A stretch of DNA of 64,000 nt from Methanoregula sp. (GTDB lineage: Archaea > Halobacteriota > Methanomicrobia > Methanomicrobiales > Methanospirillaceae): contig NZ_JAJRCG010000002.1 in the NCBI RefSeq assembly GCF_028679125.1, positions 62,001 through 126,000 of the forward strand. The letters are read 5' to 3'. Shown one piece after another: positions 18,762 to 34,595 of the stretch. Made by a program: the position numbers and the translations under genes. The notes beneath the pieces are model-generated. The model was not told the DNA's origin and made no database searches. It saw nothing but the letters and a program-made list of their open reading frames with translations. Positions within the stretch are counted from its first letter, which is position 1, and each line of letters begins with the position of its first letter.

Positions 18762-20278
18762 TCCATTGCCCCGTCATGCACCTTCTCCGCAAAGCCGAGA
18801 TATTCCAGTGCCCGATTCCGGATCCGGATCAGATGTTCTTCCACAGAGATCCCGTTCTTTGCCGAAGGATCGACAAACGGCAGTGAAAATACCATACGGC
18901 CCCCGGCACCGGCCCCGCCCAGGACCAGCGGATTGAGATCGCTTATCCCTGGCAGGAAGATGAGTCGGTCCAGCCGGATACCGCCCGGGGATTCCGGGAC
19001 ATCGATCCTTCCCACATTCGAAGGGACAAAGCCGGGAAGGCCCGCCTCATAATTGCGGGTAAACGCGAAGGCAACATTTCCGGTATCCCTGATGAACCGT
19101 TGCAGGGTATCTGTGCGGGTATATGCATCCGGGACTTTATCGACGAACAGGCTGAACGCTGAGAGGGCATCGATAAAGGATGGTTCAAATTCCGGTATGT
19201 CGAGACAGGACGGGTCCAGAACCTCGATCCGTGAGTGGATTTTTTTGTGCAGGTCCTTTGCGTTATCCCAGAATGTTTTTTTCACGGAATAAGCAAACGG
19301 GAACTTTACCCCGCCATCGCAGAAACAGAAGACATTCCCGATTGGCGGGTTCAACCGCCTCCTTAAGTCAAAGGGAACCATCACCGTCTGCTTTTTTTCT
19401 GGAAAACCTCCGGTGATATCAGTATGGGCTGCCAGGCATGCCGCAGAGACTGCCGATCCCACGGTAATCCCCTGGCTCCTGCAGGTTGCAAGAAGGTGAG
19501 CGGATTCCTCCGGATCGAACTCCAGGAGGACAAGACCGGGTTTCCGGTTCTCCCAGTAACCACGGTACAGGGCAGCATACTCTTCCGCCCCGAAATGGTA
19601 CGGGTTCTTTTGCCACTTCCGGTTACCAAGGCTGACAAAGAACCGGGCAATGAGCCCCTGCAGGGATATGCCGGGCTTCACAAGATCAAGGACATCCGGT
19701 GGATCCAGCACGCGGACTTCCTGGGCAGGATCCTCATACAGGCAAAAGATGTCCCGGACAAGGTTCGCAAGCGCCATGCCGTCGCAGATGCTGTGGTTGC
19801 ACAAAATGAGGAGATCGGACACCTCCGGTGACTGGAGGAGCACGAACCTGATGAGCGGTCCCCTTCCGATATCGAAGGGAACCCGAGCCTCTTCTTTCAG
19901 TTCGTCAAGCCACTGGTGTTCTGACTCTCTCTCGGCAATCCTCATCGGGACCGGCGGAACACCTTCTGATGAGAACCATGCCTCGTGCCGCTCATCGAAC
20001 ACGACTTTTGCGCGGAGCAACGGGTGTTTCCGGGAGGCAGCATCGAGCGCCTGCCGGAGCCGAATCGTATCAACAGCGCCGGTGATCCGGGCTGCCATGA
20101 TGATGGTAAATAACGGGCCCATGAAGAAGAGCCGTTCGCACCGGGACATCTTCCGGATACAACCGGGGATACCGGGATTTTTCACGTTTCGCATTTCAGT
20201 CTGAGATGGCATTCCGGTTGAGGATTTGACCGGACTGGTTTCTTCCCCGGATGAACCGGGGTTTATTGTTGGTTGCAT
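18758..20278 (-). CDS. Condensation-domain / alcohol acetyltransferase-like acyltransferase
   Basis: LILCNHSICDGMALANLV (HxxxDG-type catalytic motif), KHPLLRAKVVFDE, MVPFDLRRRLNPPIGN. Confidence 0.75.
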   Translation of the reverse strand: MQPTINPGSSGEETSPVKSSTGMPSQTEMRNVKNPGIPGCIRKMSRCERLFFMGPLFTIIMAARITGAVDTIRLRQALDAASRKHPLLRAKVVFDERHEAWFSSEGVPPVPMRIAERESEHQWLDELKEEARVPFDIGRGPLIRFVLLQSPEVSDLLILCNHSICDGMALANLVRDIFCLYEDPAQEVRVLDPPDVLDLVKPGISLQGLIARFFVSLGNRKWQKNPYHFGAEEYAALYRGYWENRKPGLVLLEFDPEESAHLLATCRSQGITVGSAVSAACLAAHTDITGGFPEKKQTVMVPFDLRRRLNPPIGNVFCFCDGGVKFPFAYSVKKTFWDNAKDLHKKIHSRIEVLDPSCLDIPEFEPSFIDALSAFSLFVDKVPDAYTRTDTLQRFIRDTGNVAFAFTRNYEAGLPGFVPSNVGRIDVPESPGGIRLDRLIFLPGISDLNPLVLGGAGAGGRMVFSLPFVDPSAKNGISVEEHLIRIRNRALEYLGFAEKVHDGAME

Positions 20279-20867
20279 TTCTGAATCTCGTTTGGTCTGG
20301 AATTATTCTCATGAGCGATTCATGGATGTTCATGAGCCCGGGACGGATCAGGCTTCCGGCACTGGCGATTACCCGTTTTTCCGGCGCCGTCAGCACCTGA
20401 TCACAATGGAGGGTATTTTTCGTGATGAGGGATGCGGGCCGGTCACGAATGACCTCACGTAGCATCCGAAACATGGAGGGGAGGTGCGGGGAACCGGTAC
20501 GCACGCTGACGTAAACCGGTCCTGTTAATAAAAACCCGCCGGAAGATTACAGCATTACTGGTTACACCATTCTGCCTTCACGTGAACGTGAGGGCATGCT
20601 GCTTTCTCCGGGCATGAACATCAGGGAGATATTCCGGTTATGGAACTCCGGTCTCCCGTTGGTTCAGGGTATTAAAACTGCATACCTGATATAGAGCGTG
20701 AATCTCCAAATAATCTGCGGTCCGTTTGCCCGAACTTCTTCTCGTACGCCTCGGTAAACCTCAGTGTACGGGTCGGCGGAGGGGTTGGTCCCCTAAGACA
20801 TTTCGCCGAAGTGCCAGGTAGTTGGATCAGGGGCGGTTGTGTCCCGGCACCGGTCAGGGCCCATCAG

Positions 20868-21050
20868 TTATGTATGGTGGCAATAAGCATCGTGACAGCC
20901 GGAGTTTAACGGAGCTATCTGACCGGCCACCTGATCAGGAGCGATTACCACGAAATACATCACAAGTGCGATGATGGTGGCGATGAGGGCGAGGGCGATC
21001 ATGAACGTTACAAGTTTTTTTATGGCATCGGGAGACATTGACGCAGACAT
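20868..21050 (-). CDS. Small single-TM hypothetical protein
   Basis: MSASMSPDAIKKLVTFMIALALIATIIALVMYFVVIAPDQVAGQIAPLNSGCHDAYCHHT. Confidence 0.55.
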   Translation of the reverse strand: MSASMSPDAIKKLVTFMIALALIATIIALVMYFVVIAPDQVAGQIAPLNSGCHDAYCHHT

Positions 21051-21145
21051 GGGGAGAACCTTCCGTATAAGTCTTCATTTATCAATGAGGGTATATAAGA
21101 ATATACTATTTTGAATAAATGGGGGGATTATTTTTTACCTTGACA

Positions 21146-21207
21146 TGAGCGGCGGACCCGGGACTGGATTCGTGCAATTGCCCGGAACCGGGGACACTGA
21201 GGAACGA
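21146..21207 (+). repeat. Island intergenic repeat, copy A (short 3' module)
   Basis: gcggacccgggactgg...ccggaaccggggacactgaggaacg. Confidence 0.75.
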
Positions 21208-21306
21208 TGATGGAGAGGGTAAGGTTCTGGCAACTCACAAAAGATTCCGCAATAGTTCTAAAATATTTATTAATAGTTCGTCGCCCATTTTACCATAGGT
21301 ACTATT

Positions 21307-21603
21307 ATGAGATCCACCCGGCAGGATATCCTTTCCTCACTGAAAAAACTTAAAGGGGAAGTGGCACGGGAATATTCTGTCAAAAAAATAGGCCTGTTCG
21401 GCTCAATCTCCCGGAGCGAAGGGACCGAACAGAGCGATATCGATCTCTTGGTGGAGTTCTCAAAGCCGGTTGGTTTTGTAACATTCATACGGCTTGAAAA
21501 TTTTCTTTCAGAGCAACTCGGGGAGAGGGTTGATCTCGTGACTTCGGATTCCTTAAAGCCAGTGATCCGCCAGGATGTTCTCGCTGAGGTCATCTATGTC
21601 TAA
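21307..21603 (+). CDS. MntA-like minimal nucleotidyltransferase (type VII TA antitoxin-like)
   Basis: GLFGSISRSEGTEQSDIDLLVEF: GSx10DxD motif; followed by HepT-like ORF. Confidence 0.88.
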   Translation: MRSTRQDILSSLKKLKGEVAREYSVKKIGLFGSISRSEGTEQSDIDLLVEFSKPVGFVTFIRLENFLSEQLGERVDLVTSDSLKPVIRQDVLAEVIYV

Positions 21604-21937
21604 ACGCGAGGTGAAACTCTACCTCACGGACATCGATGATTCAATCTCCACGATTCTGTCCTATACCGATGGGATAACGTATGAACAACTGCTCGGCGAC
21701 CGGAAAACCCGCGAGGCAATCATTCTCAATTTTGTGGTTATCGGTGAAGCGATAAAGAAAATTCCGTCGGAGATTATCGAAAGGTACCCCGACGTCCCCT
21801 GGAAAGAATTTGCGGGGATGCGGGACAAGATGGTCCACGGGTATTTCTCGATAAGTCCCATGATTATGTGGGAAACAATCCACCACGATCTGTTACCTCT
21901 TGCAACTGCGGTGAAAGAACTACTCCGGCAATGTTAG
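21596..21937 (+). CDS. HepT-like (DUF86) ribonuclease toxin
   Basis: FVVIGEAIKKIPSEI ... AGMRDKMVHGYFSI: Rx4HxY motif of HepT. Confidence 0.9.
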   Translation: MSKREVKLYLTDIDDSISTILSYTDGITYEQLLGDRKTREAIILNFVVIGEAIKKIPSEIIERYPDVPWKEFAGMRDKMVHGYFSISPMIMWETIHHDLLPLATAVKELLRQC

Positions 21938-21945
21938 GGGAATGT

Positions 21946-22248
21946 ATGGAATATTCCGTCCTGATCCACAAGGCTGAGGAAGGCGGGTTCTGGTCTGAAG
22001 TGCCAGCCTTGCCCGGCTGTCTTTCGCAAGGGGAGACGGTAGAGGAGACGATCGCAAATACGAAGGAAGCTGCCGAGCTGATCATCTCTTGTCTTAGGGA
22101 AGATAACCGCGAGATCCCGGTTGAAGATGAATTCACCGTCCTTCGGATCCGGGTAAGCGACGATTACACCGAAGAGCGCAGGCAGTGGCTCAGCAACGAT
22201 CTTGATGAAATCTGTGGAGAGATCCAGCAGACGCAGAAAGAGGAGTGA
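21946..22248 (+). CDS. HicB-like antitoxin-family protein
   Basis: MEYSVLIHKAEEGGFWSEVPALPGCLSQGETVEETIANTKEAAELIISCL. Confidence 0.88.
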   Translation: MEYSVLIHKAEEGGFWSEVPALPGCLSQGETVEETIANTKEAAELIISCLREDNREIPVEDEFTVLRIRVSDDYTEERRQWLSNDLDEICGEIQQTQKEE

Positions 22249-22595
22249 ACCTCATGGTTGACGCACAAGTCCTCGAAGTGGTCCTTTTTTTCAGCGCCAT
22301 CGTGAGGGAAAAGGGTGTTCACATCCACGATCTTATCCTCTTTGGGTCATCAGGCACCGGAATTGCTATTCCGAAAAGCGACATCGACATCGCGATTATT
22401 TCGAGCGATTTTGCCGGTAAGGATATTTTTGACCGGGCTCTCATGACGAAAGACGCGGAGATCCAGACCGTCAGGAAATACCGTGTGGCCCTCGATGTGC
22501 TCACCCTGACGCCGGAAGAATACCAGGATCCGGCATCGCTTATTGCCGGCACAATCCGGAAAGGAATCATTGTGCCGGTTACTTCATCTGCTTGA
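22245..22595 (+). CDS. Nucleotidyltransferase domain protein
   Basis: IHDLILFGSSGTGIAIPKSDIDIAIIS: GSx(n)DxD motif; start overlaps the HicB-like stop. Confidence 0.82.
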   Translation: MNLMVDAQVLEVVLFFSAIVREKGVHIHDLILFGSSGTGIAIPKSDIDIAIISSDFAGKDIFDRALMTKDAEIQTVRKYRVALDVLTLTPEEYQDPASLIAGTIRKGIIVPVTSSA

Positions 22596-22640
22596 GATAA
22601 TCCGGTACGTGCGTTCATTCCCGGATCTATTTCCTGTCGG

Positions 22641-22751
22641 TCGCGTGCGGTGGGGCGGGGCCGGGCTTGTGGTGACTGGGCGGACCCGGGACCGGTTAGT
22701 ATCGAGGCCGTCGTCAATCTCCGGAAACGGGGGCACTGAGGAGCGCCGGTA
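22641..22751 (+). repeat. Island intergenic repeat, copy B (3' module)
   Basis: ggtggggcggggccgggcttgtggtgactgggcggacccgggaccgg...gtcgtcaatctccggaaacgggggcactgaggagcg. Confidence 0.85.
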
Positions 22752-22801
22752 ATGGCGGGCCGGGACAAAAAAATGAGATACCAAAAACCAGCGAGAAAAA
22801 A

Positions 22802-23092
22802 TTAATAAAATCCGTATTTTTTATGAGCCTGCTCGATTGGCAGTATCTCCTGGACAATCACCAGTTTTTCCTCTTTATCGATATCGTAAAATGCGGTGTA
22901 ACTGCGGGAAATGTGAAGCCGGTAAATTACAACCCCGCCTCGTAAAACCAGTTTCTCTTTATCCCCTTTGCTTCCCGGGAATGGATCTTCTTCGAGCCGT
23001 TTCAGGGCAGTTTTGATGATCCTTCGTGACTTCTCCGGCAGGCGATTGATCTCATCAGCTAACTCGTGCCAGAGCACAAGGGAAAATGTCAA
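22802..23092 (-). CDS. RelE/ParE-family toxin
   Basis: EINRLPEKSRRIIKTALKRLEEDPFPGSKGDKEKLVLRGGVVIYRLHISRSYTAFYDIDKEEKLVIVQEI. Confidence 0.85.
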   Translation of the reverse strand: MTFSLVLWHELADEINRLPEKSRRIIKTALKRLEEDPFPGSKGDKEKLVLRGGVVIYRLHISRSYTAFYDIDKEEKLVIVQEILPIEQAHKKYGFY

Positions 23093-23289
23093 TCCTTAAT
23101 CTCCGAAAGTGAAACGTACCCTTCTTTCTTACGGCCGCTCCACGTCCTGACATCTTCCTCAAGCCTGCGCCTCTTGCGGTCCTCGATCATCTCTGCCAGG
23201 AGATCCGTATAGGTCTGGCCGGCCGCCCGCATCTCGGCAAGGTCCTTCCATACCGGCTCCGTTACCGGTATCCGTTTTACCGCAGACAT
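23089..23289 (-). CDS. Antitoxin paired with the RelE-like toxin
   Basis: MSAVKRIPVTEPVWKDLAEMRAAGQTYTDLLAEMIEDRKRRRLEEDVRTWSGRKKEGYVSLSEIKD; overlaps toxin start. Confidence 0.75.
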   Translation of the reverse strand: MSAVKRIPVTEPVWKDLAEMRAAGQTYTDLLAEMIEDRKRRRLEEDVRTWSGRKKEGYVSLSEIKD

Positions 23290-23337
23290 GATCAGATTGT
23301 AAACATTGTAAGTATGAATATTTTTGGCTGGTTTTCT

Positions 23338-23427
23338 GCGTGTGTTGGGGGTCGGGCTTATGGTGGTTGGGCGGACCTGAGGCCGGTGTAGTACCGGACC
23401 CGTTGTCAGGTGCCGGAACATCGGGGT
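23338..23427 (+). repeat. Island intergenic repeat, copy C (diverged 3' module)
   Basis: gggggtcgggcttatggtggttgggcggacctgaggccggtgtagtaccggacccgttgtcaggtgccggaac. Confidence 0.75.
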
Positions 23428-23530
23428 TCCCCGGGTGGAGAGGGGAACTCTTTTTTAGAAAAGGTACCGGAAAAATACGGCAGCAAAATACAGTGCGGAA
23501 AAAATAGTTCCGGGAAATTTTTCCCGGCAA

Positions 23531-23902
23531 TCATGCAGGCATTCCACCGGCCGCGAGCGGCTTCCCGTCCCGGTCGATCTCGATCAGTCCGGTGCCGGTG
23601 ACCAGGAAGAACCGCCATGTCCCGTGTTTCGACCGGAGCCAGAGTTCGGCCGAGATGGCAGCGTCCCGGGCGATGATCCGGAGCTTGTCGATCTCGTCTT
23701 TGAAATCCCCGGCAATCTGTTCGATCGCCACGAGGATCTGCGGCGCAAACATAACCCGTGCGAACGTGACCGGGATCTTCGAGATGATGGATATGTCATA
23801 GATCCGTTCAGGGCCGAGACCCGACATCTGGAAGACGCCGCGCAGTTGGGCGATGGGCATCGCCGCAGCGAGCGCCCGGTGCGGACGCGGTCCGCGGCTC
23901 AC
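23531..23902 (-). CDS. Hypothetical protein of unknown family; GTG start overlapping the stop of a 24-aa leader ORF
   Basis: VSRGPRPHRALAAAMPIAQLRGVFQMSGLGPERIYDISIISKIPVTFARVMFAPQILVAIEQIAGDFKDEIDKLRIIARDAAISAELWLRSKHGTWRFFLVTGTGLIEIDRDGKPLAAGGMPA. Confidence 0.6.
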   Translation of the reverse strand: MSRGPRPHRALAAAMPIAQLRGVFQMSGLGPERIYDISIISKIPVTFARVMFAPQILVAIEQIAGDFKDEIDKLRIIARDAAISAELWLRSKHGTWRFFLVTGTGLIEIDRDGKPLAAGGMPA

Positions 23903-23973
23903 CGGAAGCACCTCCCGGTGGTTTTTAAGGTGGTTGCCGGATTTTGTACCGGCGGGGTTTTGGTTTTTCTCAT
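23899..23973 (-). CDS. 24-aa putative leader peptide MRKTKTPPVQNPATTLKTTGRCFR with strong upstream Shine-Dalgarno
   Basis: AAAGGAGGTAACAACACATG start context; TGA stop overlaps the GTG of the next ORF (GTGA). Confidence 0.5.
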   Translation of the reverse strand: MRKTKTPPVQNPATTLKTTGRCFR

Positions 23974-24262
23974 GTGTTGTTACCTCCTTTTGTTGTGATG
24001 TCGCGGGGCCCTTTGACAGAACAGGATTAGCTCGGGGTATATAAGCGCTTGTATGAATAAATCCGGAAACACAAAATCCAGAGGTTTTGCTCGCGATTGA
24101 GCGCCAACGGGGCCCGATACGCTGATATTGGCGGGCGCAAAAATGGGAACCGCATGTGGTGTACAGGAGGGAACTTCTGCCGGAACGGGTCCCGGGAGAT
24201 CCCCCGCCGGCTGATCCGGCCCACGGTACCCTGATCGGTCTGGTCTTCGTGTGCTGGAACAC

Positions 24263-24850
24263 GGCTAAATCCGACCTCAATTATTCCCGTCGATAATGAG
24301 GGGTAAATTCCGTACCCGGTTCCCTAGTTTTTGCGAATTATGACCTCTGTTTTTGGTGCTTTTGGGAAAAGAGGTACAACCGGGCTCGCAGCAGGCTCCG
24401 TTGTACCAGAATTCCCACGGGTGCCTCCCAGCCTTCTGTGAGGGAGGTCACCGGGGAGGTGTCGTCTGGCAAGGTCACCGGGGATGGAGGTGCCCATCGT
24501 CAGTCGCTGGTATCCTGAGGGCAGTGCCAGGGGATGCGGTGGAGGGGGGTGGGAGTTTGCGAACAGGGCCCGGACAAAAAAAATTATTGCGGACAGGGCC
24601 CGGTAAAAATATTTTTGATTGCGCTGGATTTTTCCGGAAAAATTTTTGGTGCAAACGTAAACGGCCCGGAATTTTTTTACACGAACCGGTTCTGCCGGGA
24701 ATTTTTTTTGCCGGAGCAACCCGACACGATCTCCCGCCCGTGTGCAGTGGGGCGGGGTCGGGCTCTCGCTGATCGGGCGGACCCGGGACCGTATTTAGTA
24801 CCGGACCCGTCGTCAATTGTTGGAACCGGGGGTACTGAGGAACGCTGGCA
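24263..24850 (+). repeat. Island intergenic repeat, copy D (full length, about 588 bp)
   Basis: Near-colinear with 26690-27234, from gctaaatccgacctcaattattcccgtcga to the gcggacccgggacc module. Confidence 0.88.
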
Positions 24851-24912
24851 ATCAGCAGGAAAAATCATAACTATAACAGAAATAACAAACCAGAAAAATC
24901 CAGATTTTTCAC

Positions 24913-25707
24913 TCAAGAATGGGATTTTTTCTTCGAATATCCCTCAATTACCTCCAGCATTGTCTCAAACGACTCATCAAAATCCGGAACCCCGCTCATC
25001 TGGTGGCCCAAAGAAACCTGCCACAGATCTTTGAAGTGCTCCCGCTTTCCATTGAGTACCGCCATATCGACAACAACACCTTTCGCATCGCATTTACGAA
25101 GGAGAATCGACTTCACAACCCGGTGGTCCACCCGGTTCGCCAGTTGCACGATATCATAGAGATCGCGTGAACGGCTCCGCTGGAAGAGCGACCGTATCTT
25201 CTCTGCCATGATCTCTTCGAGCGCATACGAAGCCACGGATACAGAGAGCCCGTCGGAATACGGGTGGAAGACCGGGCGTTCGCTGACCGGAAGCAGGACA
25301 TCCTCCTGGCCCGGGCCGGTCAGGTCAAGATCGATTTTCACCGGGGATGATGAACCCCGGTTCAGGATCCGGAACCGGGCCGTTGCCTTATAACCGGTTT
25401 TAGTTTCCCGGAAGCCGGGATCGTCTTCGAACAGGATGCCACTCTCCTCACGAACCCGGAGTACTGCATCGCTCACCGCTGCCTGCAATGCACCAGCATC
25501 GACCGGTTCAAGAAGGGTAAAATCGAGGTCATCGGAGAACCGGTAGTTCTCGATGAACACTTTCCGGATGCCGGTCCCTCCCTTGAATGCCATGTTGATT
25601 GGGCGAAGTGCGGACAGGAGCCAGTTCTGCGCATAATCCCGCTCAATGGTGGAGGTGGGAACGCCGGATTCCCGGGCGCGTTCCTTGATCTCAAGGGTCG
25701 TAATCAT
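24913..25707 (-). CDS. AbiEii-like nucleotidyltransferase toxin (type IV TA)
   Basis: MAFKGGTGIRKVFIENYRFSDDLDFTLLEPVDAGAL; overlaps the AbiEi-like gene. Confidence 0.9.
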   Translation of the reverse strand: MITTLEIKERARESGVPTSTIERDYAQNWLLSALRPINMAFKGGTGIRKVFIENYRFSDDLDFTLLEPVDAGALQAAVSDAVLRVREESGILFEDDPGFRETKTGYKATARFRILNRGSSSPVKIDLDLTGPGQEDVLLPVSERPVFHPYSDGLSVSVASYALEEIMAEKIRSLFQRSRSRDLYDIVQLANRVDHRVVKSILLRKCDAKGVVVDMAVLNGKREHFKDLWQVSLGHQMSGVPDFDESFETMLEVIEGYSKKKSHS

Positions 25708-26462
25708 TCAAGCGACTCCGACAGCACAGCATCGTGATTGATCACGAGCCGCCATTTCGGATCGTTCTTTCCTTCTGCCGGCATGGTGGGATCCAGCAGC
25801 AGGTATTTTTTCGAACGCGGCGGCGGGAGATCGATTTGCACGCCCAGTTTCTCGCACAGGTACCCGAGCCTCCGGACCACGGCAAAGTTATCGATCCGGA
25901 TGGCGTATTCCGTGAGCCGGTCGCGATCCAGCGAACCGCTTTTGAGCGCTTTTGCGACTTCGATGATTCCCCCGGCGTACTGTGGCTTGTCGAGGCAGTC
26001 GATGATCGTCTTTTCCTTGTCTGTGATGCTGACCGGAGTCTCCTCGATCCATTCCTTACGGATTCCGAAGATCTTCTCCTCCTTCACCCGCACGATCTGA
26101 TAGTTCACTCCGAAAATCTCCATCGCGCTTTTGCTTTTGCGTGCAGGTGTCTGGATAAATACGGTGGCAGGGATCTGCTCGGTGAGACCGTAGTGGTGGA
26201 GAGCGCTCCAGTAGGAGATCGCGTACGGTTCGACAAGGTACGACGCGATGACAAATTCGTGGAGCGTGTATTTTCCTTTCTCGCTCCCGAGCGGAATGAT
26301 GAGGTACTTGCCCTTGTCAATCCGTTCGATGAACCCTTTTTCCTCCAGCCGGAAGAGGATGACCCTGAGCGTTCCTTTACTGATGTGCGTCTTCTGGTAG
26401 AGCTGGTCAAACGAGAAGACCTGGTTCTCTTTTGCCATGGACTTCAGGATCTCAATGGTCAT
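25704..26462 (-). CDS. AbiEi-like antitoxin/transcriptional regulator (type IV TA)
   Basis: Winged HTH at N-terminus (TLRVILFRLEEKGFIERIDKGKYLIIP), YLVEPYAISYWSALHHYGLTEQIP, KEKTIIDCLDKPQYAGGI. Confidence 0.88.
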   Translation of the reverse strand: MTIEILKSMAKENQVFSFDQLYQKTHISKGTLRVILFRLEEKGFIERIDKGKYLIIPLGSEKGKYTLHEFVIASYLVEPYAISYWSALHHYGLTEQIPATVFIQTPARKSKSAMEIFGVNYQIVRVKEEKIFGIRKEWIEETPVSITDKEKTIIDCLDKPQYAGGIIEVAKALKSGSLDRDRLTEYAIRIDNFAVVRRLGYLCEKLGVQIDLPPPRSKKYLLLDPTMPAEGKNDPKWRLVINHDAVLSESLE

Positions 26463-26689
26463 TCCCCGGAGTTCCCCCTTAGATACACTAATGTTATCAT
26501 TTATGTTAACATTTGCGTACTGGAGGGGGAATTATCCGGGTTCCCTGTTTGACGCATTAACGTCGGACAGATCCATCAGGTCGGAGGGGGACCGTCGTCA
26601 AATGCCGGTACGAAATCCAGACATCAGATCCGGCACCCGGGAAAACCAAGACTCCACAATCCGGCCCTGACTTTTGCCATCAAAACGTT

Positions 26690-27234
26690 GCTAAATCCGA
26701 CCTCAATTATTCCCGTCGACAACTCACAGTAAATTCCGGGCCCGGTTCCGCATTTTTACGAATTATGACCTCCCCTTTTTGGGGGTAGGGGGAAAAGAGG
26801 TACAACCGTCCCCGTTAAGGGCTCCGTTGTACCTGAATTCCCACAGGTGCCTCCCAGCCTTCTGTGTGAGGGGTCACCGGCGGAGGTGTCGTCTGGCAAG
26901 GTCACCGGGGAGGGAGGTGCCCATCGTCAGTCGCTGGTATCCTGAGGGCAGTGCCAGGGGATGCGGATGAGGGGGGGCGGGAGTCTGCGAACAAGGCCAG
27001 GACAAAAATTGATTGCGCCGGATTTTTCCGGAAAAAATTTTGTGGGAACGTGACCGGCCCGGAATTTTTTTTATACGAACCGGTTTTGCCGGTTTTTTTT
27101 GCCGGAGCAACCCGATGTGATCAATCAAGTCGGCCGCATGCAGGGGGGCCGGGCTGGAACTGATTGGGCGGACCCGGGACCGGTTGGTCCCGACCCGTCT
27201 TGCTTCTCCGGAACCGAGGGCACTGAGAAAAGTG
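26690..27234 (+). repeat. Island intergenic repeat, copy E (full length, about 545 bp)
   Basis: Near-colinear with copy D; block ggtgcccatcgtcagtcgctggtatcctgagggcagtgccaggggatgcgg identical or nearly so. Confidence 0.88.
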
Positions 27235-27262
27235 AGCGATTCGGCGAGTTCGGGTTGGCGTC

Positions 27263-30200
27263 CTAATTGGCGATCTTTCTTGAACGGACCATTTGTTCCC
27301 TGAGATAATATGCCCCGGAAGATCCTGTATCTACGAGTGCATCCAGCAAAATCTTACACGATTGATATTGTATTCTCGGGATCGATGTGCTATTTTCAAC
27401 TAAAAAACGGTTGATGCACATTTCGAGATAAAATGCTGTGTTTTGAGTGAATAATTGTGTTCCACCAATAGCCTTCTGATGTTTTGCAAGAATTTTCATT
27501 CCTGAATCAAGAAATACATCTGAATATTGAAATATCAACTTGGTAGCGGACTCAAAAACTACCCGGTTTACCCCGGCAGTGTCTATGAAATCGATGATTA
27601 GTCTTTTTCCTTGAATGAGATTATCGCGTTCATATTCGACTTGGTGCGGTTGAAGATCTGAAAATAACATATCACGAATTAATTTATGCTGATTTTTTAC
27701 CAGGTCATCTTCATATCTATTCGATCGAGATTGGTTTTCAGCATTTTTTATGGCAATTTTTTGCATTGGTCCTGATAACGCACTCCATAGTTCCCAATAG
27801 CGATCTCGTTTTTTTGTCTTATCGGCCGATACGAAAGTCCACATTAAAACCCATTTTACAAGATCTGGAGCTGTGTCGCAGAGTAACTGTAATTGTTCCT
27901 CATATTTTTGTTTGACTTCACCTTTTGAAATGTTGAACAAATGGTCCGACAATAATTTTCCAAATTCTGTGGGAAGTTTATAATCCATTCTTTCTCTATA
28001 TCCCTCTCTAACATGACTATCGTGGGACTCTTCATCTTGCTCCGCTTTTCCGAAGAGTTCCAACATTCGTGAGATAAGGAAGATATGCTCTGGGTCAGTT
28101 GAACCGTTAGGAATCATCAAACAAGATGTCAATAAATGTTCGGGGCTATGAGATTCAAAAGTTATATTTGTAATATCTGTTGTTATTTCCCCACGTGCAA
28201 TTTTTTCACAGAAAGCAAAAAGCCATTCATTCAGATCTTCTATTTTCTTGAAATTCTTTTGTTCCAAAGCCTCTAATCGGGAGTACTCTATAATTCCAAG
28301 AATACATTTATGAGCAAAATCAGGATCTCGTTGCCAGAGATTGTTTCTCACACCGTTAGCGGCTTCGATTCGCACATTTTTATTTACATGTGTTAGTGCG
28401 ATGGCTATGATCGTCTTGACAATAATCTTCTCATCGTCGTTTGAGGTAAAATCTAAACTAATTGGGAGAACGGAAGCCGCAGCCGCAGCACCACTTGAAT
28501 CTGTTACATCCATAGCTACGGCTGGATTTCCGGAATCTGCATGAACAATGATTGTATTGAGGATTAAATCGAAACCTAAAGAAAAATTCTCACTAGTAAT
28601 TTCGTCATGGTGGTCTCGTAACAACACTGCTGCTCCATTTACGAGACACCTAGAGAATAAAAAAAGTCCCGACGATAGTATGTCTGAAACATCACCTTTT
28701 GTATTGCTTTGGATGATCGTTGATAAACTTTCAATTTCTTCATATGCATCACGCCATGTAGAATAATATTCTCTATCCAGTTTCTCATTTTTCAGAAGTT
28801 TGTCCGACCACAGACACAGTGAATAAAATCGATTATTTAATGTCTGTTCAGATTCGGTTTTCTTTTGGATTTCAATTAGATCGGGCTCCATATTTTGTGG
28901 AGTGAATACAATCCTACTGTTCTCTTTATCAACTTCTGGCTTCCACTCACGACTATCAATTCTATGGAACCGGAATCTCCAGTTCTCATCTTTTCCGGTC
29001 TTTGACCGCAAATCGTCAAGGATTTTTAAAATCTCATCCCTAGAATCTTTAAACTGGAGATATCCGATCAGCCATTCAAGATCTTTTTTCCTCCAGGGTC
29101 GTAATGCAGCTTTACGTCTTTCTTCTATGTAGATATCTGCTAAAGGATCGATTTTTGGTACAAACAAATTAACTTCATTTCCACCACGTTCGTGTAACAT
29201 CCTGTCCAAATCCAAACCATAAAATTCAGGTGTTCTTAGAATTGGAAAAGCGGCTTTTCCTATTTTCTCCGGAAAACCAGTCGCGATCGATGCCAGGATA
29301 GCGGTTGGCATGACAGAATTGCTTCGCCGTAAAACTTTACTGAAAAGAGCTTCAAAAATTTCAGGACGATCAAAAATAGTCACAAGATCGATCATCCAGT
29401 TCTCTAGTGCCATCAGGGCACATTGTAAAATATACGGAATTACTTCATGACCCCGATATCCGACCCACAAACGTTTCGAACAATATTGTTTGATTTTCGA
29501 TCCGTCGTTCAGGGTGATTTCAACTTCCTGAACCCCCGAAGATTTCATATCGTCTGGCAAATTCGGGAATCTTTCAGGATCATCGAATTCAGAATGGGCG
29601 TAACTATCCGCAGTTGTGTTAAGGAATCCTAAGATAAAATCCAATCCGTTTACCGAAGGAAAACGAAGTAGGGAAGAAAATGGCCCTTTTTCTCCACTAG
29701 GCGGAAAAAATTTCATATCCGTCTTGTATTTATCTAATCCAAAACACTCGTCTGCATCTCTATATCCGTACCCACTATCAATATCGTTGTCAGATGGTAC
29801 TTTGATCCATTCATGCCATGCAATATTGATGACTGTGTCTGGTACGTATTTGCACAAGAACTTAGATTCTTGCTTACGTAGAGCGATGGCGACAAGATCA
29901 TCAATATAGCGCGGTCGACGCTTTTTAGTATCTTCTTGAAACAAGTCAGTTTCCAGAAGTTTGTGGAATTCGTCCTGAATCGCCGGAACGACACGGACGA
30001 TGACATTTAGTATTTTTTTTCTTTCTTCATCCTCTCTATGCGAATCCTTGATATCACTTAGCAAATGCAGCGCAAGAAGGCCAACTTCACGGGAATTGGG
30101 GGGCAGATCGTCATTTATGTTAATTTGCGAGGACCATTCATCGAGAACCGAAGAAATATGAGGTAAAAGGTTTTTTGAAATATTTTGTTTTTCAGTAAAT

Positions 30201-32386
30201 ATGAAATGAATTATTGCATACCAGCCCGGGCCATAGGGTTTTAAGAAAATAGTATGGGACAGATATCCTGCCATTTCTTTTTTAATTGCCAGCTGACTCA
30301 ATAACTCCTGATTGGGAATTTTACATGCAGTTCTTAGAATAAAACAGAATCGTTTGAGAAGTTCGCTATCGTTCGTAAATAACTGATCTTTTAATTCGCA
30401 GAGAAACCCAAGTGGGTTTTGGCCCTGGAGTACAGCAGTTATTGTTTCATCTTGCCAGATTCTTTCAATCTTCTCGTCGTTTAATATTGACAGAATCAGG
30501 GGCTTGATATCCGCCCCATCTTTTAATTTTTGATTAAGCCACAAACGAAAAGCTCGATTCATTGCCGGTTCGTGACCTATTGAGTCTAAGAATCCTTTGG
30601 TTTCCCCGATAGATGACTGAAATTTCTCTTCAATATATTCAACAATTGCCCAATCTTCAAAAACATCATGATCTGGCCGGACGCGAGAATTTGATGGATT
30701 CCGATGAATCAAATTATCGGCTTCAAGTTTAAGTAATGCATTAGCATCGAATTCAGTACTAGTGACTTCGTAAACCATTTGTTTTGCCCGTTTTACTGCG
30801 ACAGCGATAAACGCTCGCCGTCGCCTTATTGGCATACCGTCCGATCTCTCAGATTCTTTTGAGATTATATCATTCCAGACGGCTTCCCGAAATTCCCGTT
30901 CGCCCTCGCTGTTTGAAAACTTCTTGCCATTATTGATAACTAGGTAAGCAAGGTCCGCTAGGAACGGGTTTTTCAATAAAGGTTTGAGAAGGGGATTTTC
31001 TGCAAAAGGTTTCAGAATTTGAAATTTTTCGCACAATTGTGTGATATCATCATCCCTAAATCCACTGATCGGTATTGTTTCATAATTAACACCGGATGGC
31101 TGAAGAAACGTAAAAGATATTGGTTGAAAAGCATACTCTCGACAGCTCGCAATTATTGTCCATTCGGGATGTCGTTGAATAAATTGAATCAGATCGTTAA
31201 ACGCGGTTTTGTTCTGAAGTTCGAGTAATTTTTCCAAAGACTCAATGAGAAGGTATTTTTTCGGCATTAAGGCGAGACCTTCTTCTAGATCTCCGAGAGA
31301 ACTTGTCAGACCTATTGCTGAAAAAACGTTATCCAGGTGAGGTTTGTCAAGATCCTCTGTTCGAAGGCAAAATATAGGCTCTTTTCCGATCAAGTCGCCA
31401 GTAAATTCTCGAACGAGACTGGACTTTCCACAACCCCTCTCCCCTAAAAGGATGACAAATTTATTTTCTGCACTGTTTTCAATAAGCTGAGCAAGTAGTT
31501 CTGGACGCTTGACATGAAACCCACCAATTTCCGACCTTATCCCCTCAACGATGTATTTACTTCTTTCATTCAATTTTTTGAGGTCGTGAGCGAAGTGCGG
31601 ATTTTTCTTAGTATCGAGAGAATCACGGATTTCTTTCGAAATTGTAAGTGGCGAAAGTGTTCCTGCATCTGGATTGAATGATTGTACTTCTCCGAGGATC
31701 TTTTCCCAAATTGACGACGGATCATTATTGGAACTTTTGGAAATCAGTGATAGTACTAACTGGAGAATGCTGCTGGAATCCGAATCCAGATCATATCCCA
31801 ATTGATAGAAGTGTTTTAAAAAATCCCAAAGTTGATGATCCGAAAGGGCAATCCCCTCATTTGCATTTTGTAATTGTGTCCTGAATGCTTTGAGAAGATT
31901 TTGTTTCTTTTCGCTGCTGAATTTCCCTTTACTAACCTTATAGAGAAATTCGTTTTCATCTTCAGAATGTCGTGCCCAATCCAGAATTGTTCTAAGGTTA
32001 GTATCGGAGATAACGGTGATAAGGGCAAATACATCCGTTTCTTTATTAAAAATATCAGGATTATTAAAATCCGTCCAAGCTGCTTGAATTACCTCTTTAA
32101 AAGTTTCATTTTCTTCCGTTATTGTTATTGAACGTTTAATTTGAGCTAAAAGTTTTGCTTCTTGGCCTGTTGATTCGTCTTTTGTAAAGACAATGAAATC
32201 ATCAATATTGAACCCGGCATAACGTCCTTGTAGTTTTATTTTTTGAATAGGCCATTGGGGTAAACAAGGTGAAATTCTGCTCGTTAACATGAAGACTACA
32301 AATGCAGCCTGGACCCGTGTTTCAAAAAATGCCCCTAAGGATCCTGAAGAAGCGGGATTAATCAGATTTTTTTCTTTATCGGTCAT
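27263..32386 (-). CDS. Large STAND-like NTPase with putative N-terminal PD-(D/E)XK (Cap4/DUF4297-like) nuclease domain; candidate antiviral effector
   Basis: N-term GAFFETRVQAAF...FNIDDFIVFTKD...AKLLAQIKRS; P-loop VILLGERGCGKSSLVREF; ECF-like TIIASCREY; winged-helix-like RPDHDVFEDWAIVEYIEE; long helical C-terminus; visibly AT-rich. Confidence 0.72.
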   Translation of the reverse strand: MTDKEKNLINPASSGSLGAFFETRVQAAFVVFMLTSRISPCLPQWPIQKIKLQGRYAGFNIDDFIVFTKDESTGQEAKLLAQIKRSITITEENETFKEVIQAAWTDFNNPDIFNKETDVFALITVISDTNLRTILDWARHSEDENEFLYKVSKGKFSSEKKQNLLKAFRTQLQNANEGIALSDHQLWDFLKHFYQLGYDLDSDSSSILQLVLSLISKSSNNDPSSIWEKILGEVQSFNPDAGTLSPLTISKEIRDSLDTKKNPHFAHDLKKLNERSKYIVEGIRSEIGGFHVKRPELLAQLIENSAENKFVILLGERGCGKSSLVREFTGDLIGKEPIFCLRTEDLDKPHLDNVFSAIGLTSSLGDLEEGLALMPKKYLLIESLEKLLELQNKTAFNDLIQFIQRHPEWTIIASCREYAFQPISFTFLQPSGVNYETIPISGFRDDDITQLCEKFQILKPFAENPLLKPLLKNPFLADLAYLVINNGKKFSNSEGEREFREAVWNDIISKESERSDGMPIRRRRAFIAVAVKRAKQMVYEVTSTEFDANALLKLEADNLIHRNPSNSRVRPDHDVFEDWAIVEYIEEKFQSSIGETKGFLDSIGHEPAMNRAFRLWLNQKLKDGADIKPLILSILNDEKIERIWQDETITAVLQGQNPLGFLCELKDQLFTNDSELLKRFCFILRTACKIPNQELLSQLAIKKEMAGYLSHTIFLKPYGPGWYAIIHFIFTEKQNISKNLLPHISSVLDEWSSQININDDLPPNSREVGLLALHLLSDIKDSHREDEERKKILNVIVRVVPAIQDEFHKLLETDLFQEDTKKRRPRYIDDLVAIALRKQESKFLCKYVPDTVINIAWHEWIKVPSDNDIDSGYGYRDADECFGLDKYKTDMKFFPPSGEKGPFSSLLRFPSVNGLDFILGFLNTTADSYAHSEFDDPERFPNLPDDMKSSGVQEVEITLNDGSKIKQYCSKRLWVGYRGHEVIPYILQCALMALENWMIDLVTIFDRPEIFEALFSKVLRRSNSVMPTAILASIATGFPEKIGKAAFPILRTPEFYGLDLDRMLHERGGNEVNLFVPKIDPLADIYIEERRKAALRPWRKKDLEWLIGYLQFKDSRDEILKILDDLRSKTGKDENWRFRFHRIDSREWKPEVDKENSRIVFTPQNMEPDLIEIQKKTESEQTLNNRFYSLCLWSDKLLKNEKLDREYYSTWRDAYEEIESLSTIIQSNTKGDVSDILSSGLFLFSRCLVNGAAVLLRDHHDEITSENFSLGFDLILNTIIVHADSGNPAVAMDVTDSSGAAAAASVLPISLDFTSNDDEKIIVKTIIAIALTHVNKNVRIEAANGVRNNLWQRDPDFAHKCILGIIEYSRLEALEQKNFKKIEDLNEWLFAFCEKIARGEITTDITNITFESHSPEHLLTSCLMIPNGSTDPEHIFLISRMLELFGKAEQDEESHDSHVREGYRERMDYKLPTEFGKLLSDHLFNISKGEVKQKYEEQLQLLCDTAPDLVKWVLMWTFVSADKTKKRDRYWELWSALSGPMQKIAIKNAENQSRSNRYEDDLVKNQHKLIRDMLFSDLQPHQVEYERDNLIQGKRLIIDFIDTAGVNRVVFESATKLIFQYSDVFLDSGMKILAKHQKAIGGTQLFTQNTAFYLEMCINRFLVENSTSIPRIQYQSCKILLDALVDTGSSGAYYLREQMVRSRKIAN

Positions 32387-32593
32387 GTCCCTTGCGCCCT
32401 TATTATAATTGCTCTATTTTCAAACATTACAATCTTCCGTGCCTTTAATTGGGCGATGAAGTAAAATTAATCAGGTAAAGGTTTGAGATTAACTATCACG
32501 ATGTCAAAGGACACTGAATCTATCAGCATTAACGAAAAAATTCAAATTCATTGTCCTTATTGTGGAAAAGAGTTTTTAGATTTCGAACAAATC

Positions 32594-32730
32594 GGTTCCG
32601 GAAAATCCACGCTCGCTAATCGATACGCTCTATGCGGAAGGCCAGCGCCGGTACAGGGAATCGCTCTCCAATTGCCCGTCAGTTCCTCATGCTGATGCAG
32701 AAGTCCGACGTGGACTTCATCGGGTCAGTG
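32594..32730 (+). pseudogene. Decayed duplicate of an internal 5' segment of uvrA (Walker A region)
   Basis: ggttccggaaaatccacgctcgctaatcgatacgctctatgcggaaggccagcgccggtac... aligns to 33874-34010 of uvrA with substitutions and a frameshift. Confidence 0.85.
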
Positions 32731-32787
32731 CATGATAAAAACGAAAACAGATTATTTTCCCGGGCAGAATTATTTTCACAGGGAGGA

Positions 32788-33360
32788 TTAACGTTCATCA
32801 TAATCGCTTAACGGCGCATTCTTCCCGATCCTCTCAAGTTCCTTGTGGATGTCGATATACAGGGGAATAGTGTCCCTGCCCTTCAGCTTTCCTGGATCGA
32901 AAATAGCTTCATGAAAAGAGAATTTTACGTAGAATCCCACGGCATCGGGTTTTGCATCGACCGTAATGATCCTGCACCCGATATACCGCGAGAATCGTAT
33001 CCAGATGGAAAAAATCTTCAGCAACATCGCGCGGCCTACACCCTGGTGTTCAAAATCCTTGTGGGTTGCGAGCCGGGCAATTTTCAGAGCCGAATATGTT
33101 TTGTACTGATAACCAGGATCGCCATCGTCTTCTGCAAGCTCATCCTTCTTGATAACATCCGTGACAAGCGTGAAATACCCGACAAGACGACCCTGCCAGA
33201 AAACCAGCCGGGTAACGGAAATCCGGTCCAGCTGGTTCTGGTAAGCATCTTCCGATAAAAAATCTTTCAGCTCGGGATTCCTGCAGCTGAATGTTGAAAT
33301 CTGTTGATCGTGATCGGCAGTTAAAACTACAAATTCAAGATCATCGAGGCTGATACTCAT
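32788..33360 (-). CDS. GNAT family N-acetyltransferase, candidate TA toxin
   Basis: FSCRNPELKDFLSEDAYQNQLDRISVTRLVFWQGRLVGYFTLVTD ... KIARLATHKDFEHQGVGRAMLLKIF. Confidence 0.87.
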   Translation of the reverse strand: MSISLDDLEFVVLTADHDQQISTFSCRNPELKDFLSEDAYQNQLDRISVTRLVFWQGRLVGYFTLVTDVIKKDELAEDDGDPGYQYKTYSALKIARLATHKDFEHQGVGRAMLLKIFSIWIRFSRYIGCRIITVDAKPDAVGFYVKFSFHEAIFDPGKLKGRDTIPLYIDIHKELERIGKNAPLSDYDER

Positions 33361-33507
33361 TTAGAAACGCGATCGTTCAGCCAGATCGGCTGCTTCCCTG
33401 ATAAGTTTACGTCCTTCCTCGGTGTAGGTCGGATTATCAATATATTTCTGGAACCTGACAGACTCTTCCCGATCAAGGATGAGACCCAGTTCAATTGGTT
33501 TTGCCAC
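33361..33507 (-). CDS. 48-aa small protein, candidate antitoxin of the adjacent GNAT protein
   Basis: GTG-initiated (V/M)AKPIELGLILDREESVRFQKYIDNPTYTEEGRKLIREAADLAERSRF; TAA abuts the ATG of the GNAT gene; below the ORF-track length cutoff. Confidence 0.7.
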   Translation of the reverse strand: MAKPIELGLILDREESVRFQKYIDNPTYTEEGRKLIREAADLAERSRF

Positions 33508-33776
33508 GGTTGTCCACCTTCGTTATAATGGTAACTAAGTTCGTTTGCATATTATAAAATTGTGGTCAACGTATCACTCGCTTCTTGCTCACTTCAATCC
33601 GAGTCGTTTCACGTAACTCCCATTGTTTTCCGGAGTGTCGTGTTGGCAGGATGACGCCCCTGAAGGTGAATTTTTTTTCCTCTGGATGTGATAAAAAACA
33701 ACACTTACTCTCTTCACTTTCATGCCCCGAACTGAACTCCTTTATATGCCGGTGCCAAACAGTCTGAGCACCTAGC

Positions 33777-34595
33777 ATGAAAAATATCATCATCAAAGGT
33801 GCCCGCCAGCACAACCTGAAAAACATCAGCGTCGAAATCCCCCGCGACAAACTCGTGGTGATCACGGGAGTCTCCGGGTCCGGCAAATCAACGCTCGCAT
33901 TCGATACGCTCTATGCAGAAGGCCAGCGCCGGTACGTCGAGTCCCTCTCTTCCTATGCCCGGCAGTTCCTCGGCATCATGCACAAGCCCGATGTGGACCA
34001 TATCGAGGGACTTTCCCCTGCCATCGCCATCGAGCAGAAGACCACGTCCAAGAATCCCCGGAGCACGGTCGGGACGACAACCGAGATCTACGATTACCTC
34101 CGTCTCCTCTACGCCAGGATCGGGACACCGTTCTGCCCCGAGCACAATATTCCCATCACCGCCCAGACCCCGGACCGGATGGCGGACCAGATCACCGCGG
34201 AACATCCCGGCATGGTCACTATCCTCGCACCGATCGTGCGGCAGAAGAAGGGAACGTACCAGCAGCTCCTCCGCGACCTGAACAAGGAAGGATACGCCCG
34301 GGTCCGGGTCAACAGGAAGATCATCCGGACCGATGAGGAGATCAGCCTCGACCGGTACAAGAAGCACGACATCGAGATCGTGATCGACCGGCTCGAAACA
34401 AGCGACCGCTCGCGTCTCGCGGAAGCCGTGGAGAACGCCCTCAAAAAGTCGGAAGGACTCATCATCGCCGTGGACGAGCAGGAGAATGAGACAACGTACT
34501 CCTCGCTGATGGCCTGCCCGGTCTGCGGGATGTCGTTCGAGGAGCTCCAGCCACGGATGTTCTCGTTCAACAGCCCGTTCGGCGCCTGCGATTAA
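33777..34595 (+). CDS. uvrA: UvrA N-terminal portion, ends at an in-frame TAA in the Zn-finger CxxC
   Basis: [66 protein letters not shown] ... ends FGACD*. Confidence 0.88.

What the first reader, a model, noticed from the sequence alone, without database searches (positions are those of the whole stretch)
27263..32386. 1707-aa nuclease-NTPase, candidate antiviral STAND (Avs/Cap4-like) protein in an archaeal defence island
Seen: one AT-rich ORF in a GC-rich neighbourhood. N-terminal GAFFE...FNIDDFIVF...LLAQIKRS fits a PD-(D/E)XK layout (E, D, QxK). It is followed by P-loop LLGERGCGKSS, IIASCREY, a winged-helix-like HDVFEDWAIVEYI and a roughly 1000-aa helical region. Established knowledge: Avs-type defence proteins have an N-terminal effector (often a Cap4-like nuclease), a central STAND NTPase and a C-terminal helical sensor. 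Composition plus TA neighbours suggest a horizontally acquired defence gene. The Walker B region (KYLLIESLEK) is atypical, and the C-terminal sensor is not one I recognise.
Basis: partly seen in the sequence, partly recalled or inferred. Interest (0 to 1): 0.85.

Follow-up and report, generated by a model that had tools for sequence, protein, structure and literature searches.

The report
Methanogen Avs4 immune receptor, swapped nuclease
A methane-producing archaeon carries a giant antiviral alarm protein whose virus-sensing part matches the bacterial Avs4 immune receptor but whose killing part is a different, uncharacterised DNA-cutting-type domain also found in E. coli prophages; it is a new combination of known parts, sitting in an unusual repeat-divided island of toxin and defence genes.

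Summary
The 1707-aa ORF is real (minus strand, 38.9% GC, Ka/Ks 0.165 against a 90%-identical Methanoregula copy). Residues ~263-1707 align end to end with Avs4, the portal-sensing STAND receptor (PADLOC E=2e-172; NCBIfam 659 bits; PDB 8DGF E=7e-74). It falls below NCBIfam's 1500-bit equivalog cut-off, and residues 1-262 are not the Mrr-type nuclease of EcAvs4. They form another module with invariant E22, D62-D63, K84 (and near-invariant Q82) across 16 proteins, a PD-(D/E)XK layout. Close copies (42-46%) head an unrelated 1180-aa E. coli prophage protein and a Shewanella plasmid protein, so the effector is shuffled between receptors. Membership in Cap4 could not be shown, and two structure predictions failed. 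Best mechanism (inferred): the C-terminal sensor binds a viral protein, most likely the portal; ATP-dependent oligomerisation activates DNA cleavage and aborts infection. The atypical Walker B is a D-to-E change. Avs in archaea is already reported. More unusual is the setting: avs4 lies in a row of TA/defence modules separated by a ~100-bp same-orientation repeat upstream of uvrA, recurring across Methanoregula, without attC hallmarks or a detected integron integrase.

The parts
27263..32386 (-). Whole gene: 1707-aa Avs4-type STAND receptor with a non-Mrr effector
   Evidence: ORF; PADLOC Avs4 E=2.4e-172; NCBIfam Avs4 659 bits; PDB 8dgf E=7e-74
31601..32386 (-). N-terminal effector module, residues 1-262, PD-(D/E)XK-type layout, not covered by Avs4 models
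   Evidence: Avs4 profile matches start at residue 263-269; 16-sequence alignment A9
32321..32323 (-). E22, proposed motif I acid of the nuclease
   Evidence: invariant in 16 of 16
32198..32203 (-). D62-D63, proposed metal-binding acid(s)
   Evidence: invariant in 16 of 16
32135..32143 (-). Q82-I83-K84, QxK motif
   Evidence: K84 invariant, Q82 in 15 of 16
30527..31600 (-). STAND NTPase and winged-helix region, residues 263-620 (boundary approximate)
   Evidence: alignment A3 with E. coli, archaeal and Bacteroidota Avs4; weak Pfam nSTAND3/AAA_16
31418..31444 (-). Walker A GERGCGKSS, residues 315-323
   Evidence: aligned with GEGGSGKTS of E. coli Avs4
31229..31252 (-). Walker B LLIESLEK, residues 379-386; D to E at E382, same change in G274 homologue
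   Evidence: aligned with VIDSAEHL/VIDSAERL; G274 LLIESLEK
31133..31156 (-). IIASCREY, residues 411-418, conserved sensor arginine R416
   Evidence: aligned with VWFTTRNA etc.
30647..30670 (-). HDVFEDWA, residues 573-580, Avs4 signature (H)D(I/V)xE(D/E)WA
   Evidence: D574 and E577 invariant in A3
27266..30526 (-). C-terminal sensor, residues 621-1707, Avs4-type
   Evidence: Avs4 profile covered to its last columns; invariant columns through to R1696-E1697
24913..26462 (-). AbiEii/AbiEi type IV TA module, neighbouring cassette
   Evidence: Pfam PF08843 1.5e-29, PF09407 6e-6
32788..33506 (-). GNAT-type toxin candidate (190 aa) with small upstream antitoxin-like ORF (about 33401-33506)
   Evidence: Pfam GNAT 4e-7; sequence
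21307..21937 (+). Nucleotidyltransferase-like ORF plus HepT-like toxin module
   Evidence: Pfam HepT-like 5e-26; ORF list
27136..27231 (+). ~100-bp island repeat immediately downstream of avs4 (one of five copies: 21136-21205, 22645-22744, 23336-23427, 24742-24843, 27136-27231)
   Evidence: nhmmer; copies found by a search of the held genome are all in this stretch
32593..32715 (+). Displaced fragment of the uvrA 5' end (uvrA nt 99-222, 80% identical), upstream border of the avs4 module
   Evidence: blastn

Best explanation
It is an antiviral STAND (NLR-like) receptor of the Avs4 clade with a swapped effector. Proposed mechanism: during infection by a tailed archaeal virus the C-terminal ~1100-aa helical sensor binds a conserved packaging protein, most likely the portal; ATP-bound NTPase domains oligomerise; the clustered N-terminal PD-(D/E)XK-type domains become active and cleave cellular and viral DNA, killing or arresting the cell before virus release. 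Shown here: Avs4 homology of the core, presence of Walker A, altered Walker B and sensor arginine, a distinct conserved effector module with invariant E...DD...QxK, module shuffling, island context, patchy distribution, purifying selection. Inferred: nuclease activity and substrate, portal as trigger, oligomerisation, abortive outcome.
For: Core: PADLOC Avs4 2.4e-172 over 269-1699 with no other Avs model hit, NCBIfam Avs4 1.6e-197, 8DGF 7e-74, and a family profile that hits only 8DGF strongly (1660 bits); end-to-end alignment with invariant columns to the C-terminus. Effector: E22, D62, D63, K84 invariant and Q82 near-invariant in 16 proteins down to 19% identity; same module on several different scaffolds. 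Full architecture conserved in a second genus, G274 (61%/50% identity), there interrupted by an insertion sequence. Patchy: 3 of 108 genomes of its own family, 3 of 112 of the G274 family. Defence/TA surroundings. Literature: nuclease effectors of Avs1-4 are triggered by terminase or portal and kill the cell (PMC12931631); Avs recognises structurally conserved portals with <5% sequence similarity (PMC11249213); a tailed virus of Methanomicrobiales, Blf4, has portal and terminase genes (PMC8540584).
Against: No experiment. Below the NCBIfam Avs4 equivalog cut-off (659 of 1500 bits). Core identity to E. coli Avs4 is only ~24%, so the ligand could differ. The nuclease fold is not confirmed: AlphaFold models at pLDDT 38-39, no PDB or Pfam match. 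Walker B D-to-E may change ATP hydrolysis. The effector also sits on a scaffold without a detected NTPase, so it may have other modes of activation.
Confidence: 0.82

Rival explanations
1. Same receptor class but the trigger is not the portal: the diverged sensor recognises another viral protein (large terminase, capsid or an archaeal-virus-specific protein).
For: Only ~24% identity to E. coli Avs4; separate clade from the E. coli-type Avs4 in the tree; other Avs receptors use terminase, Ksap1 or jumbo-phage proteins (PMC12931631).
Against: Sensor aligns with Avs4 over its whole length and not with other Avs models; Avs sensing tolerates extreme sequence divergence of the portal (PMC11249213).
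Confidence: 0.3
2. The N-terminal module is not a DNase but another activity (RNase, or a non-catalytic DNA-binding or adaptor domain).
For: No fold confirmation; no Pfam, NCBIfam or PDB match.
Against: E, DD and QxK conserved at fixed spacing in 16 proteins of 19-96% identity; Avs1-4 effectors are nucleases (PMC12931631); strongest purifying selection of the gene lies here (Ka/Ks 0.10).
Confidence: 0.12
3. Decaying or inactive remnant, not a working defence gene.
For: Atypical Walker B; the G274 homologue is broken by an insertion sequence; a 98% identical N-terminal piece in G510 lies at a contig edge.
Against: Intact 1707-aa frame in two genomes and Ka/Ks 0.165 overall.
Confidence: 0.05
4. 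Housekeeping NTPase or repair factor linked to uvrA.
For: Adjacent to uvrA/uvrC.
Against: Present in 3 of 108 genomes of the family although uvrA sequence is found in all 39 genus genomes; foreign composition; homologues on plasmids and in defence settings.
Confidence: 0.02

Closest known systems
E. coli Avs4 (AVAST type 4; PDB 8DGF; NCBIfam NF041815; PADLOC Avs4)
   Same: NTPase, winged-helix region and C-terminal sensor align end to end; Walker A, sensor arginine, (H)D(I/V)xE(D/E)WA signature
   Different: ~24% identity; N-terminal Mrr-type nuclease (ETNP...GWQxKFY) replaced by another module; Walker B D to E; archaeal host
Hymenobacter aerilatus plasmid protein WP_245097727.1 (L035)
   Same: Same effector class plus Avs4-type core over most of its length
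   Different: ~25-30% identity; bacterial plasmid
G274 homologue (unnamed archaeal genome of the same phylum, L047)
   Same: Same architecture, 61% (effector) and 50% (core) identity, same IESLEK Walker B
   Different: Interrupted by an insertion sequence at residues ~402-408
E. coli prophage protein WP_000182525.1 / L062, and Shewanella baltica plasmid WP_014620926.1 (L039)
   Same: Effector module 44-46% identical with all motif residues
   Different: The remaining ~900 aa are unrelated, with no NTPase or family detected
Mrr-Avs4 of archaeal genomes G217 and G387
   Same: Avs4 core, archaeal, above the NCBIfam cut-off (2113 and 2059 bits)
   Different: Mrr-type effector; group with E. coli Avs4, not with this clade
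Cap4-type nuclease (Pfam PF14130)
   Same: Order of conserved residues and a similar post-nuclease segment (weak)
   Different: No Pfam hit; profile-profile probability 2-4%

Membership tests
Avs4 (AVAST type 4) | Avs4-type STAND NTPase and C-terminal sensor over full length | tested here: met
Avs4 (AVAST type 4) | NCBIfam NF041815 equivalog score of at least 1500 bits | tested here: not met
   658.8 bits; positive controls G217, G387 exceed it
Avs4 (AVAST type 4) | N-terminal Mrr-type nuclease as in EcAvs4 | tested here: not met
   profile starts at residue 263-269; different residues and spacing
Avs4 (AVAST type 4) | Activation by viral portal protein, ATP-dependent tetramer, abortive DNA cleavage | not testable with these tools
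   needs experiment
STAND NTPases | Walker A, Walker B, sensor arginine, winged helix | tested here: met
   Walker B is E instead of D (conservative); Pfam nSTAND hits are below gathering cut-offs
PD-(D/E)XK nucleases | Conserved E, D and (D/E/Q)xK at catalytic spacing | tested here: met
PD-(D/E)XK nucleases | alpha-beta-beta-beta-alpha-beta core fold | tested here: inconclusive
   two AlphaFold jobs with pLDDT 37.5 and 38.6
Cap4 nuclease (PF14130) | Match to the family profile | tested here: not met
   no hit at E<=10; hhalign 4.0% and 1.9%; only three Cap4 sequences were used for the comparison
Integron/CALIN gene cassettes (for the island repeats) | attC core sites GTTRRRY/RYYYAAC and single-strand hairpin | tested here: not met
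   8 of 63 copies with GTTRRRY against 13.6 expected; fold z-scores -1.2 to +1.0
Integron/CALIN gene cassettes (for the island repeats) | Integron integrase IntI | tested here: not met
   TIGR02249 above cut-off in 0 of 39 genomes; one 129-aa fragment of 171 bits in G023

The most novel reading that the evidence does not exclude
avs4 is one module of an archaeal gene-capture platform that is not an integron: Methanoregula collects TA, restriction and other accessory genes upstream of uvrA as one- or two-gene cassettes bounded by a ~100-bp same-orientation repeat, with displaced uvrA 5' ends marking insertions, and Avs-type receptors with interchangeable effectors are among the cargo.
Probability: 0.2. 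Interest if true: 0.8.

Novelty: new variant of a known kind. Interest (0 to 1): 0.47.

Why it matters
It adds an effector-swapped form of a well-studied virus-sensing receptor in a methanogen and names an uncharacterised nuclease-type module shared between Avs4-type receptors and an ATPase-less prophage protein in E. coli, which makes module swapping directly testable in a laboratory strain. It also gives a concrete cross-domain test: whether an archaeal Avs4-type sensor recognises portals of archaeal tailed viruses. The repeat-divided island upstream of uvrA could be a separate gene-capture mechanism in methanogens.

Tried and rejected
Cap4 identity of the effector: no Pfam hit, hhalign 2-4%. 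PDB profile searches with the effector alignment gave only chance hits. The nuclease-protease pair of PMC12799240 was considered: that nuclease is of the metallo-beta-lactamase type and encoded separately, so it is not this module. A viral-contig scan with the whole protein found nothing; one phage record has a weak core-only match. Rfam found no RNA in 20000-34000. The attC/integron reading of the repeats was tested and not met. The key Avs structural paper (10.1126/science.abm4096) is not held, so portal-contact residues could not be mapped.

Full report
OBSERVATION. It is 38.9% GC (GC3 0.34) between genes of 55-60% GC. A second Methanoregula genome has the same gene at 90% protein identity over all 1707 residues; Ka/Ks is 0.165 overall and 0.10 in the first 262 residues. 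The protein is therefore under purifying selection. The host is assigned to Methanoregula because the held same-genus genome G012 carries what appears to be that MAG contig.

CORE. Residues ~263-1707 are Avs4-type. PADLOC Avs4 matches 269-1699 at 2.4e-172 and no other Avs model appears. NCBIfam Avs4 matches 263-1699 with 659 bits, below the curated 1500. The only strong PDB relative is 8DGF, ATP-binding protein Avs4. A nine-member alignment with E. coli, archaeal, cyanobacterial and Bacteroidota proteins runs to the last residues, with invariant columns throughout. Walker A is GERGCGKSS. Walker B LLIESLEK aligns with VIDSAEHL, so the 'atypical' feature is D to E, shared with the G274 homologue. 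HDVFEDWA aligns with THDIYEEWA.

EFFECTOR. Residues 1-262 are outside every Avs4 model and unlike the Mrr-type nuclease of EcAvs4. They match a module found at the N-terminus of different proteins: 44% identity in a 1187-aa Shewanella baltica plasmid protein whose remainder is unrelated, 42-46% in ~1180-aa prophage proteins found in 8 of 5426 E. coli genomes, in the examined case beside lambdoid prophage genes, about 30% in a Hymenobacter Avs4-type protein, and 19-31% in Azospirillum, Polaromonas, Pseudomonas, Burkholderia, Aromatoleum and Agrobacterium proteins. Across 16 sequences E22, D62, D63 and K84 are invariant and Q82 nearly so, at near-constant spacing. This is a PD-(D/E)XK layout. 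The fold is not confirmed: two AlphaFold jobs failed, and no Pfam, NCBIfam or PDB family matches. Cap4 membership was tested and not met, though the Cap4 comparison set was small.

MODULARITY. The effector is closer to that of a prophage protein with an unrelated body (about 45%) than to that of Hymenobacter with a homologous body (30%), which indicates shuffling. Avs4-type cores carry at least three effectors: Mrr (E. coli, G217, G387), this module, and in Haliscomenobacter an N-terminus that hits the Avs2, LmuA and UG9 N-termini and reads like a trypsin-type protease (LTARHV; inference, compare PMC12799240). In a tree of cores, this clade and the Mrr-Avs4 of G217/G387 are separate, the latter grouping with E. 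coli (long branches, so the position of Hymenobacter and others is unsure). Archaea thus probably received Avs4 more than once.

DISTRIBUTION. 3 of 108 genomes of the family and 3 of 112 of the G274 family. In G274 the same architecture (61% and 50% identity) is interrupted at residues ~402-408 by an insertion sequence with 17/18 terminal inverted repeats.

MECHANISM. Nuclease effectors of Avs1-4 act after terminase or portal recognition and cleave host and phage genomes (PMC12931631). Portals with <5% sequence similarity can be recognised (PMC11249213). Tailed viruses with portal genes infect Methanomicrobiales (PMC8540584), the order to which Methanoregula belongs (own knowledge). Hence the most likely course is portal binding, ATP-dependent oligomerisation, activation of the N-terminal nuclease, abortive infection. 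Trigger, oligomerisation and activity are inferred.

CONTEXT. Around avs4 lie an NTase/HepT module, AbiEi/AbiEii and a GNAT-type pair. These modules are separated by a ~100-bp repeat; five copies are found, all at 21.1-27.2 kb of the window and all on the plus strand, and a search of the held genome with one copy finds no others. In 20 further Methanoregula regions (partly chosen because they matched) the repeat model finds 77 more copies; within each region all copies have one orientation, the same as uvrA where uvrA is present; median spacing is 878 bp. The genes between them include NTase/HepT, HicA, AbiE, restriction enzymes and methylases, hydrolases and others. Fragments of the uvrA 5' end recur upstream of the intact uvrA, twice directly abutting a repeat. 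avs4 lies between the last repeat and such a fragment (32593-32715). attC hallmarks are absent and no integron integrase passes its cut-off. How the modules arrive is unknown.

NOVELTY. Avs4 is known; AVAST in archaea is already reported (5.6% of archaeal systems in rumen genomes, PMC11834463). New here is the combination of an Avs4 core with this effector, and the identification of the effector as a mobile module. I therefore rate it a new variant of a known kind. It is not filed as NCBIfam Avs4, since the cut-off and the Mrr feature were tested and not met; in the sequence features of sensor and NTPase it looks and should work like Avs4.

Noticed in passing
window 21136-21205, 22645-22744, 23336-23427, 24742-24843, 27136-27231; loci L080-L098: A ~100-bp repeat (GGGCGGACCCGGGACCGG...GTACCGGACCCGTCGTCAATTGCCGGAACCGAGGGCACTGAGAA), always in one orientation per locus, separates one- or two-gene TA/defence/accessory modules upstream of uvrA and elsewhere in many Methanoregula genomes; 82 copies in 19 loci, median spacing 878 bp, not attC-like.
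   Followed up: partly
window 32593-32715; L092 8022-8237; L094 2970-3173; L079 14895-15197; L082 17297-17596; L084 15732-15908: Displaced copies of the uvrA 5' end (within nt 1-300) lie upstream of the intact uvrA in the same orientation, in two cases abutting the repeat, which suggests that the uvrA 5' end is an insertion hotspot.
   Followed up: partly
window 34593-34595: uvrA has an in-frame TAA inside its zinc motif (GACD*CHGLG), so it reads as 272 + 660 aa; could be a real nonsense change or an assembly error.
   Followed up: no
L062 485-4024, L066, L055; E. coli NZ_AP027748.1 3631624-3635166 (WP_000182525.1): A ~1180-aa prophage protein of unknown function carries the same effector module on a body without a detected NTPase; a candidate phage-defence gene in E. 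coli (8 of 5426 genomes).
   Followed up: partly
L047 7714-8587: Insertion sequence with 17/18 terminal inverted repeats breaks the closest-architecture homologue in archaeal genome G274 near residue 402-408.
   Followed up: yes
L036 8257-13221 and 7221-8264: Haliscomenobacter Avs4-type core carries an N-terminus that looks like a trypsin-type protease, with a 347-aa gene of unknown function just upstream; possibly the gated nuclease-protease pair described for AVAST and Hachiman.
   Followed up: no
L040 6992-8671 (Agrobacterium pAt): A 560-aa protein with the same effector module sits beside two trypsin-like serine protease genes.
   Followed up: no
window 24264-24840 and 26690-27230: The AbiE module is flanked by ~500-bp imperfect direct repeats (about 78% identical, one 95-nt block 97%), of which the ~100-bp repeat is the end part.
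   Followed up: partly
L002 5270-5695: In the other Methanoregula genome ~430 bp of unrelated DNA lies between the avs4 stop and the shared downstream repeat.
   Followed up: no
G023:C120:15020-15406 (L099): A 129-aa fragment resembles integron integrase (171 bits, below cut-off) in a Methanoregula genome; could be contamination or a remnant.
   Followed up: no
window 23531-24280: 249-aa ORF between two repeat copies with no Pfam match.
   Followed up: no
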